Assembly: GCF_018156225.1 (NCBI RefSeq)
Contig: NZ_JAGTAR010000028.1
Location: forward strand, 1-64,000
Origin: Carboxylicivirga sediminis
Lineage (GTDB): Bacteria; Bacteroidota; Bacteroidia; Bacteroidales; Marinilabiliaceae
DNA: 64,000 nt
Direction: 5' to 3'
Program-made: the position numbers and the translations under genes
Part shown: positions 6,367 to 7,639 of the stretch, in pieces
Layout of the letters: the number at the start of each line of letters is the position of its first letter
Numbering within the stretch: position 1 is the first letter of the stretch
The notes under the pieces: model-generated
Databases searched by the model: none
What the model was told of the DNA's origin: nothing
The model's input: only the letters and a program-made list of their open reading frames with translations

Positions 6367-7080
6367 TTAGAAGAAAACAACTACACCATTGGCAGACACC
6401 TGCACATTACTCCTGGGATGATGAGTAAACATCCATCCGCTTAAAAAGCCCAAACCTGCCCCCAAAACTGTATCTGAAAGCCAATGTTTGTTTTTATACA
6501 TACGGGCAAAAGCTACTGATGCCGGAGCAACATACAGCCAGCGGCTATAGGTCTCGGCATAAGGAGTAAAGGCTGCAAAGGCCAGTGATACATGTCCTGA
6601 TGGCATTGACTTATAAGCATCATTGCCATTGAACGGATCAAATTCAAATGCGCCTTCGCTTACAAATGGCCTGGCACGACCTAGGGATATTTTTATGATT
6701 TCGGTAGCTGCAGCTGTAGTGGCAATCGCCTTTATGGCGTTCCAGGAAGTTGAACGCAGCTTTTCATCTTTAAAGACATATCCTGCGCCATAAGATAAGC
6801 CAACAGCCGGCACAATCAATAGCTTCTCTCCAAACACATTTGCCACATCGGAAATCGCATCACCTGCACCTCCCTGGTTATTTTGCATCCAAGTATTAAG
6901 TGGCTGATCCACTAAAAAAGCCAAGGCCACACACGAAGTGCCGATAACAGAAATACGGGTAACATTTTTTCGGTAGTTTTTCAGTTGCAACTGATAATCC
7001 TGTGTTTCATCAGCATACTGGGCATGCATGGTATAACAGACAAGTATACCAGCCAATGTTAAAGTGAGTTTTTTAATCAT
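6367..7080 (-). CDS. PAP2-superfamily membrane-associated phosphatase
   Basis: A 237-aa protein from the ATG at 7080, which opens a signal peptide ending in TMHAQ; the open frame extends further upstream without protein-like features. The three PAP2 motifs are all present: KISLGRARP (K-x6-RP), PSGH with its catalytic His, and RMYKNKHWLSD (R-x5-H-x3-D). The family removes phosphate from lipid phosphates such as undecaprenyl diphosphate or phosphatidylglycerol phosphate; the substrate here is open. Hydrophobic helices lie around the motifs. A -7 box (TATCTTTG on the minus strand, 7092-7085) sits only a few bases before the start codon, so the transcript would be almost leaderless. Directly upstream is the 41-bp phased palindrome array. 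Confidence 0.85.
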   Translation of the reverse strand: MIKKLTLTLAGILVCYTMHAQYADETQDYQLQLKNYRKNVTRISVIGTSCVALAFLVDQPLNTWMQNNQGGAGDAISDVANVFGEKLLIVPAVGLSYGAGYVFKDEKLRSTSWNAIKAIATTAAATEIIKISLGRARPFVSEGAFEFDPFNGNDAYKSMPSGHVSLAFAAFTPYAETYSRWLYVAPASVAFARMYKNKHWLSDTVLGAGLGFLSGWMFTHHPRSNVQVSANGVVVFF

Positions 7081-7117: not shown

Positions 7118-7379
7118 GATATCGCTGGTATATCAGAGCGCTCACAGGCCGCCAACGCATTCCTGCAGTGGGAAAGCTTGTTTTTTGCGCCAGATAGGCG
7201 TTCCTGCCGCAGGAAAAGGTGTTTTGTACACCAGGCAAGTCATCCTACCACAGGATTTCATAACATTTACTTCAGTCGCTCTTTCCCATGGCGGGAATGG
7301 TTGTCTGTCAAAAAAAACATGGTTTCCCACCATGGGATTGACCATCTTTTTAACCAGACACGCTTTCCCATGGCAGGAT
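7118..7379. repeat. Array of 15-bp palindromes at an exact 41-bp period
   Basis: Six 15-bp imperfect palindromes start at 7160, 7201, 7242, 7283, 7324 and 7365, exactly 41 bp apart. All share TCC-N7-GGA; consensus WTTCCYRYNRYRGGAW at best copies. Copy 2 (TTCCTGCCGCAGGAA) is perfect. The 26-bp spacers share no obvious sequence. A weaker dyad, TGATAT-N7-ATATCA (7117-7135), has its centre at 7126, again in register, so there may be seven units. No further copy is seen at 7413 or 7085. The period is not a multiple of three and open frames through it are not protein-like. It lies upstream of the PAP2 promoter. It could be a phased operator array or a family of intergenic palindromes. Confidence 0.85.
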
Positions 7380-7639
7380 TGACAGACTTAACAATAGTGA
7401 GATTCAACCCAAAATAATGAAAGGATAGCGGGTTGTTTTGAATAATTTGGAAGGAAGAGAATGGCTGTTTAGTGCCTCATTATTGCATTAACCCGGGCTA
7501 AAGGCGATTTCTCTGGCAGGTATAACACAAATAAGACTGGAAGAGTTAACATACCGGTGCTGACCTTTTTGTATCCTCTCCATAAGAAAGCAATGGGATG
7601 AACGACATGCTTCATAAGTCATTCATCCCCTTCATGCAT

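What the first reader, a model, noticed from the sequence alone, without database searches (positions are those of the whole stretch)
7118..7379. Six (perhaps seven) 15-bp palindromes at an exact 41-bp period
Palindrome starts are 7160, 7201, 7242, 7283, 7324 and 7365: five intervals of exactly 41 bp, although the spacers show no shared sequence. All six keep TCC-N7-GGA; some arm positions change on both sides together (T/A to C/G at positions 5 and 11), as if symmetry itself is selected. A weaker seventh dyad is in register at 7126. A period of 41 bp is close to four helical turns, so all dyads would face the same side. The array lies immediately upstream of the -7 box of the PAP2 gene, at roughly -45, -86, -127 and so on. 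Possible readings: a phased operator array for a cooperative regulator, a nucleoid or curvature element, or an intergenic palindrome family comparable in idea to neisserial dRS3/NIME arrays. I know of no described Bacteroidota element with this geometry.
Basis: partly seen in the sequence, partly recalled or inferred. Interest (0 to 1): 0.78.

Follow-up and report, generated by a model that had tools for sequence, protein, structure and literature searches.

The report
Orphan DUF6261-linked phased palindrome array
A row of six short DNA palindromes, spaced exactly 41 bases apart, turns out to be a stray copy of a kind of array that sits in front of many genes of an unstudied bacterial protein family (DUF6261), in which the spacing and the mirror symmetry are kept while the letters change.

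Summary
The array is real: six TCC-N7-GGA dyads at 7160+41k. It is one of three such arrays in this genome. A second, 76% identical over 232 bp, lies just upstream of a DUF6261 (PF19775) gene. It is not a PAP2 operator: the sister genome has the PAP2 gene without the array. Arrays with unrelated palindromes but the same period recur, chiefly in Bacteroidota, where a second, weaker dyad tends to lie exactly half a period away. Conversely, with no motif or spacing imposed, 50 of 135 DUF6261 genes not picked for arrays have a triple-dyad array upstream, 38 of them at 41-43 bp and 9 at 20-22 bp. In an earlier 99-gene set it is 38 upstream against 3 downstream. Palindrome letters differ even between orthologues whose proteins are 88-96% identical; symmetry and period persist; mismatches show no RNA signature. 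Best reading: a DNA platform of helically phased dyads, most likely read by its own DUF6261 protein; the window holds an orphan copy. Binding is inferred, not shown.

The parts
7158..7389 (.). whole array, an orphan (ex-situ) copy; homologous over its full length to G000:C67:70646-70877, the array upstream of a DUF6261 gene
   Evidence: BLAST 76% over 232 bp; sister locus lacks it
7160..7174 (.). palindrome 1 TTCCTGCAGTGGGAA (5 of 7 pairs)
7201..7215 (.). palindrome 2 TTCCTGCCGCAGGAA (7 of 7 pairs)
7242..7256 (.). palindrome 3 ATCCTACCACAGGAT (5 of 7)
7283..7297 (.). palindrome 4 TTCCCATGGCGGGAA (5 of 7)
7324..7338 (.). palindrome 5 TTCCCACCATGGGAT (5 of 7)
7365..7379 (.). palindrome 6 TTCCCATGGCAGGAT (3 of 7)
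7175..7364 (.). five 26-bp spacers between the palindromes (palindromes 2-5 also lie in this interval), with a weak second dyad centred half a period (20.5 bp) from the palindromes; mean pairing 0.48 against 0.28 at offset centres
   Evidence: family-wide signal
7387..7471 (+). fragment of a separate MITE-like repeat abutting the array; not part of it
   Evidence: (copies in G010 x3, G004 x1)
6367..7080 (-). PAP2 gene, downstream neighbour; present without the array in G011
   Evidence: Pfam PF01569 E 4.5e-18

Best explanation
The window holds an orphan copy of a DUF6261-associated, helically phased double-dyad array. Shown: in its usual place such an array lies some 60-320 bp upstream of a DUF6261 gene. 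It has 3-11 strong dyads at 41-43 bp, usually with a weaker dyad exactly half-way, so that symmetry centres recur every 20.5-21 bp, two helical turns, on one face of the DNA. The letters differ from gene to gene and turn over quickly; period and symmetry do not. Copies without the gene occur elsewhere in the same genomes, as here beside PAP2. Inferred: the array is a DNA (not RNA) platform on which dimers of the neighbouring DUF6261 protein line up cooperatively, controlling its own gene and perhaps marking or bridging the orphan arrays elsewhere. Protein and palindrome diversify together, which gives each DUF6261 copy its private site. Unit gain and loss (41-bp steps) and copying spread the arrays.
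For: Forward link: 17 of 117 GTDB hit loci carry a DUF6261 gene next to the array, 16 of 17 with the array upstream; against a generous 2% (my estimate from the highest copy number seen) p is 2e-10. Reverse link: 50 of 135 DUF6261 genes not picked for arrays have a 3-dyad array (score >=16 of 18, periods 20-75 free) upstream: 41 x21, 42 x16, 43 x1, 20-22 x9, and 37, 63, 66 once each. For the earlier 99: upstream 38, downstream 3, Markov sequences 4 of 495. Co-occurrence over 393 genomes of the order: DUF6261 in 6 of 7 genomes with a period-41 TCC array and in 40 of the other 386 (p 1e-5); for match lengths of about 41-43 or 21 bp 10 of 17 against 36 of 376 (p 2e-6); for other spacings 4 of 19 against 42 of 374 (p 0.26). 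Half-period dyad in 33 such arrays 0.514 against 0.248, p 2.6e-6, and in Bacteroidota GTDB hits 0.46-0.53 against 0.27. DNA not RNA: mismatches on the gene's sense strand GT 60, AC 65, p 0.72 (41 arrays). Symmetric turnover: TCTACAAAATGTAGA and TCTGCAAAATGCAGA at syntenic loci (90% identical over 2.4 kb; proteins 96%), TTCCAAACGTTTGGAA and TTCCGCGCGTGCGGAA with proteins 88% identical. Palindrome likeness follows protein likeness in 17 pairs: rho 0.80 with residues 2-32, 0.74 with the core. The gene and array stand alone: the next gene after DUF6261 in 10 loci belongs to 10 different families.
Against: No DNA-binding fold is recognisable: the model is all-helical (mean pLDDT 87, pTM 0.54), Foldseek gives no match at E <= 0.001 in PDB or BFVD, and no PDB sequence relative was found. 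85 of 135 unselected DUF6261 genes show no array at the threshold. Of the 7 copies in this genome one has a clear array (C67), two have weaker 42-bp ones (C45, C39), and four show none (the seventh was examined with a rough start). Palindromes differ between proteins that are 88-96% identical, which fits few contact residues or no sequence reading at all. Likeness of palindrome and protein can come from shared descent alone; the excess of N-terminal over core coupling is not significant (rho 0.38, p 0.13). One DUF6261-negative genome (G287) has period-41 palindromic arrays. The half-period dyad is missing in several period-41 arrays. The genes counted are not independent (orthologues within genera), and the genomes, though not the genes, were partly chosen for having arrays.
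Confidence: 0.6

Rival explanations
1. REPtron-like selfish repeat: DUF6261 (or another enzyme acting through it) copies the array around the genome, as RAYT transposases do for REP sequences; the phasing serves that reaction.
For: Gene plus array in cis and orphan arrays elsewhere in the same genome; homology between the window copy and C67 covers only the array, 232 bp; the sister genome lacks the window copy.
Against: DUF6261 shows no nuclease or transposase domain: only PF19775 in the three copies scanned with Pfam, nothing but weak matches elsewhere (best PHROGs E 0.0009 in one of 16 members, best PADLOC E 0.001 to PDC-M67A, best NCBIfam E 0.06). Palindromes lack the REP tags (GTAG in 1 of 54 arrays, CGTC in 4 of 54, at least 2 of 3 units). 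Y1 transposase genes occur in genus members with and without TCC arrays. Copy number is low (3 TCC arrays). No target-site duplication could be read, because both species carry unrelated sequence at the PAP2 site.
Confidence: 0.2
2. Neutral minisatellite: tandem units gained and lost by slippage, with symmetry maintained by quasi-palindrome template switching rather than by selection.
For: The C122 array in G011 is exactly two units (82 bp) shorter than in G000. That array differs at 24 of 180 sites, against 11 of 282 in the downstream flank, though the upstream intergenic flank is as diverged (17 of 98). Arrays are homogeneous inside and differ between loci. Counting only columns not fixed by the search, palindromes are not significantly more conserved than spacers between the window array and its homologue (13 of 54 against 52 of 156, p 0.23).
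Against: Does not explain the concentration at 41-43 or 20-22 bp with other periods free, the half-period second dyad, or the place upstream of one gene family.
Confidence: 0.12
3. Multi-hairpin RNA leader or attenuator of the downstream gene.
For: Arrays lie upstream of DUF6261 genes; in the GTDB set of 70 arrays the pair nearest the centre is paired less often (0.52) than the next two (0.89, 0.91), as in a hairpin with a three-base loop (that set was filtered for pairing).
Against: No excess of G-U over A-C mismatches on the sense strand (60 to 65) nor per-array skew. No Rfam match near gathering score in the window region. The two orphan copies of this genome lie in tandem and convergent settings. 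Some dyads are perfect even palindromes without a loop.
Confidence: 0.05
4. Cooperative operator array of the PAP2 gene.
For: Lies upstream of PAP2, dyads phased on one helix face.
Against: Absent at PAP2 in the sister genome; the PAP2 gene matched in five further genus genomes without the array segment. Other copies and arrays stand beside unrelated genes.
Confidence: 0.03

Closest known systems
F-plasmid sopC (parS_F) with SopB
   Same: tandem 43-bp units, each with a 16-bp inverted repeat bound by a protein dimer, beside the gene of its binding protein (passages of PMC9178275)
   Different: sopC lies downstream of sopAB with a ParA ATPase; here the array is mostly upstream, no ParA was among the neighbouring genes scanned, unit letters change from gene to gene, there are orphan chromosomal copies, and DUF6261 resembles no solved protein
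REP / REPIN elements with RAYT (TnpA_REP) genes
   Same: dispersed intergenic palindromes whose letters differ between families, with a gene linked in cis to its own repeats (recalled; starts of abstracts seen and passages of PMC3733652)
   Different: no GTAG or CGTC tag as a rule (1 and 4 of 54 arrays), no HUH transposase domain in DUF6261, 41-43 bp phasing, alternate strong and weak dyads
BrickBuilt MITE of Porphyromonas gingivalis
   Same: intergenic minisatellite in a member of the Bacteroidales, units gained and lost
   Different: 23-nt unit inside an element with leader, tail and terminal inverted repeats (passages of PMC4596501); here a 41-43 bp unit and no leader or tail homology around the copy
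Neisserial dRS3 / NIME arrays
   Different: dRS3 is one fixed sequence (recalled); here the letters are free, the spacing is fixed, and there is a linked gene family

Membership tests
DUF6261-associated phased double-dyad arrays (defined here) | at least 3 dyads at 41-43 bp | tested here: met
   six at exactly 41 bp
DUF6261-associated phased double-dyad arrays (defined here) | second dyad at half a period | tested here: met
   0.48 against 0.28 in the window array; weak, and absent from some spacers
DUF6261-associated phased double-dyad arrays (defined here) | upstream of a DUF6261 gene | tested here: not met
   no DUF6261 ORF in the window; its homologue at C67 has one 100 bp downstream. Hence 'orphan copy'
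ParABS / sopC centromere | ParA ATPase gene beside the binding-protein gene | tested here: not met
   next gene after DUF6261 in 10 loci and the gene beyond the array in 3: none is ParA; only nearest neighbours were scanned
ParABS / sopC centromere | ParB-type DNA-binding protein | tested here: not met
   DUF6261: no other Pfam family in the three copies scanned, no Foldseek match at E <= 0.001
REP / RAYT (REPtron) | HUH Y1 transposase encoded between the repeats | tested here: not met
   DUF6261 is not PF01797; the three Y1 genes of this genome lie on contigs C42, C46 and C111, not on the array contigs
REP / RAYT (REPtron) | GTAG-tagged hairpin | tested here: not met
   1 of 54 DUF6261 arrays with GTAG at the foot in at least 2 of 3 units
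CRISPR array | near-identical repeats with unrelated spacers, cas genes | tested here: not met
   repeats differ and spacers are homologous between copies and mirror-symmetric; cas genes were not searched
MITE | terminal inverted repeats and target duplication | tested here: inconclusive
   homology ends with the array; target site could not be read because the sister locus differs
autoregulatory operator array | bound by the product of the adjacent gene | not testable with these tools
   needs gel shift, DAP-seq or ChIP

The most novel reading that the evidence does not exclude
DUF6261 proteins and their upstream arrays are co-diversifying, mutually private protein-DNA pairs: a family of helical proteins that builds an ordered filament on DNA whose two-turn dyad spacing is fixed by the protein while the letters drift freely, with possibly dozens of orthogonal pairs in one genome (38 gene copies in G540) and orphan arrays acting as distant docking sites. 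This would be a chromosome-organising or addressing system unlike ParABS, REP or known operator arrays.
Probability: 0.4. Interest if true: 0.9.

Novelty: categorically new. Interest (0 to 1): 0.8.

Why it matters
It gives a protein family of unknown function (DUF6261; found in 46 of 393 genomes sampled from the order, and in 38 copies in one genome) its first testable partner: a DNA array in front of its own gene. It also gives a rare natural case in which spacing and mirror symmetry, rather than letters, are the conserved information in non-coding DNA. If the pairs are orthogonal they would be a ready set of sequence-addressable DNA scaffolds, several of them in gut bacteria such as Parabacteroides and Bacteroides, and a model for how binding specificity evolves.

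Tried and rejected
PAP2 operator: rejected. Universal 41-bp period for any palindrome array: rejected. The reversed-arm control AGG-N7-CCT, searched only in the 42 genomes that had shown control hits and with a capped listing, gave periods from about 26 to 52, so 41-43 bp belongs to this family, not to palindrome arrays in general. 'Every GTDB hit is a member': rejected. 25 of 117 hits have no inner pairing, and the non-Bacteroidota ones among the weakly paired have no second dyad (0.25 against 0.25), so they are ordinary 41-bp repeats; the CTCCTT..AAGGAG repeats of Thiomargarita and others came in this way. RNA: rejected on mismatch type. Y1 transposase as the mobiliser: not diagnostic. Purifying selection on palindromes from the C54/C67 comparison: withdrawn, because the search itself fixed 6 of the 15 columns (p 0.0015 with them, 0.23 without). 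In the C67/G011 orthologues palindromes are no more conserved than spacers (3 of 75 against 8 of 130 in the five units compared). N-terminus as the reading head of DUF6261: suggestive in single pairs, not significant over 17 pairs, and 53 close pairs show no overall N-terminal peak of differences. ORF-context statistics (inside an ORF of at least 100 aa 33, tandem 18, convergent 7, divergent 5, edge 6, of 69) rest on crude ORF calls and were given no weight.

each drew 393 genomes of the order; I take the draw to be the same, since the handles shown agree.

Full report
What is there. The window region 7158-7389 holds six 15-bp dyads with TCC-N7-GGA at exactly 41-bp steps. A chain of six is far outside chance (60 Markov simulations of the window reach 1 or 2). 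Genome-wide, the two-dyad pattern at 41 bp occurs 15 times and the reversed control 0 times; the 15 are three arrays of six, on contigs C54 (the window), C67 and C122. The window array and the C67 array are the same element, 76% identical over 232 bp with homology ending at the array edges. The spacers are therefore homologous, against the first report.

Not a PAP2 element. The sister genome G011 (94% identical over the PAP2 gene) has no array there: 88 bp separate the matched flanks instead of 484. At E <= 0.001 nothing else in the 14 genus genomes matches the array segment except G000:C67 and G011:C55, although the PAP2 gene itself matched in G011 and five further genomes. C67 and C122 arrays are shared with G011 at orthologous places; the C122 copy there is exactly 82 bp, two units, shorter, and one spacer of the C67 copy has lost 1 bp. 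The three G000 copies lie in tandem (C54), divergent (C67) and convergent (C122) settings.

A family with free letters and fixed geometry. Sorted by inner pairing, the strongest class (56) is 40 Bacteroidota, 13 other and 3 unassigned; the middle class (36) is 22 and 14; the unpaired class (25) is 10, 14 and 1 (taxa assigned by me from the record titles). In Bacteroidota a second dyad appears exactly 20.5 bp from the first: mean pairing 0.525, 0.455 and 0.456 in the three classes against 0.27 at offset centres. Outside Bacteroidota it is 0.363 against 0.251 in the paired class and 0.25 against 0.25 in the other two (first seen on 70 arrays filtered for pairing). Consensus units fall into 47 sequence families in that filtered set. 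With spacing free between 26 and 56 bp, 24 of 295 genomes of the class and 36 of 393 of the order have a TCC triple match. Among the loci re-read, regular chains have periods of 41, 42, 43 or 21, with exceptions at 14, 29, 48 and 52 once each and 54 twice. Several of them are not of this family by the half-period test: G223 and G454 (41 bp), G348 (43 bp) and G370:C104 (42 bp), among others. Irregular matches are at about the level expected by chance (my own estimate).

The link to DUF6261. Pfam on the nearest flanking proteins of a first set of arrays (30 proteins) turned up PF19775 (DUF6261) three times, next to unrelated arrays in unrelated genomes, one of them the C67 array of this genome. 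A profile built from these and their relatives then found DUF6261 next to 17 of 117 GTDB hits, 16 with the array upstream and one (L139) downstream. The reverse test was made without any motif: three 6-bp-arm dyads at any equal period 20-75 within 650 bp upstream. Of 99 DUF6261 genes not picked for arrays, 38 pass upstream and 3 downstream; Markov sequences 4 of 495. On the final set 50 of 135 pass: 41 bp 21, 42 bp 16, 43 bp 1, 20-22 bp 9, and 37, 63 and 66 once each. These genes include orthologues within genera and so are not independent. Their genomes were partly chosen because they had TCC arrays, but G006, G008, G013 and G014, which showed no TCC pair at 41 bp, have such arrays too (L312, L313, L316, L390, L392, L393, L395, L410). 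In 33 of these arrays the half-period dyad is again present on average (0.514 against 0.248, p 2.6e-6; missing in some, such as L326, L386 and L410), and the last dyad centre lies 57-319 bp (median 146) from the start codon. Across 393 genomes of the order DUF6261 occurs in 46: in 6 of 7 with a period-41 TCC array and in 4 of 19 with other spacings. In a class-wide sample it occurs in only 4 of 149, this genome included. Of the genomes chosen, the array genomes without DUF6261 were G287, G223, G232, G370, G454, G502 and G097; of these G287 has clearly palindromic 41-bp arrays. The gene after DUF6261 in 10 loci is different each time, so gene and array stand alone.

DNA, not RNA; letters turn over. 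On the gene's sense strand, mismatches in the dyads are G-T 60 and A-C 65 (p 0.72; 41 arrays), so neither strand is favoured as a folding RNA. Orthologous loci in one genus, 90% identical over 2.4 kb, carry TCTACAAAATGTAGA in one species and TCTGCAAAATGCAGA in the other, changed on both sides. Proteins 88% identical carry TTCCAAACGTTTGGAA and TTCCGCGCGTGCGGAA. Over 17 pairs palindrome likeness follows protein likeness (rho 0.80 with residues 2-32, 0.74 with the core); the difference between the two is not significant, and shared descent alone could give both.

The protein. DUF6261 is about 250 residues and very diverse (15 further members 11-27% identical to the first). The model is all-helical, with a short non-helical N-terminus, a 57-residue helix and a disordered tail. 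There is no structural neighbour at E <= 0.001, no solved relative by sequence, and only weak matches in NCBIfam, PHROGs and PADLOC (best E 0.06, 0.0009 and 0.001). One paper in the held library contains the word DUF6261, once (seen in the search listing only); none contains PF19775. Searches for 41-bp palindromic repeats in Bacteroidota (titles and abstract starts of the listed papers seen) listed no description of these arrays. Absence from this open-access library is not proof of absence from print.

Mechanism. Shown: cis position, period, alternate dyads, DNA-level symmetry, turnover of letters, orphan copies. The nearest working analogue is sopC with SopB (43-bp units, 16-bp palindromes; PMC9178275 passages), but the membership tests fail (no ParA beside the genes scanned, no ParB-type protein). 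The REPtron analogy explains orphans but fails on the enzyme and the tag. Neutral slippage explains unit number changes but not the period, the half-period dyad or the gene link.

Verdict.

Noticed in passing
window 7387-7471: fragment of a separate dispersed MITE-like repeat (81-84% identical copies at G010:C130 twice, G010:C10, G004:C97) that abuts the palindrome array; the copies read have inverted ends with GAGTTCGA-like sequence.
   Followed up: partly
G000:C45:216800-219300 (L334) and G000:C39:29600-32100 (L335): two further DUF6261 genes of this genome have 42-bp arrays with other palindromes (TACAAGCTCTAGTA; TGCG..CGCA) upstream.
   Followed up: partly
G540 (4.3 Mb, one contig) and G624: 38 and 33 DUF6261 copies in one genome; of 27 G540 genes examined 7 have arrays at score >=16 and 13 at >=15 (periods 40-43).
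   Followed up: partly
L070 and L127: 2.2 kb around an array is 96% identical between a Candidatus Parabacteroides MAG and Bacteroides sp. An322: recent transfer or mis-binning.
   Followed up: no
L090, L092, L095, L151 (Verrucomicrobiales RYN_621): 41-bp arrays with a second palindrome in the spacer (AAAACTAGTTTT-like) outside Bacteroidota, without a DUF6261 hit in the loci held.
   Followed up: no
G550, G611, G433, G075: AGG-N7-CCT palindrome arrays with other spacings (about 26-36 bp), probably different repeat families.
   Followed up: no
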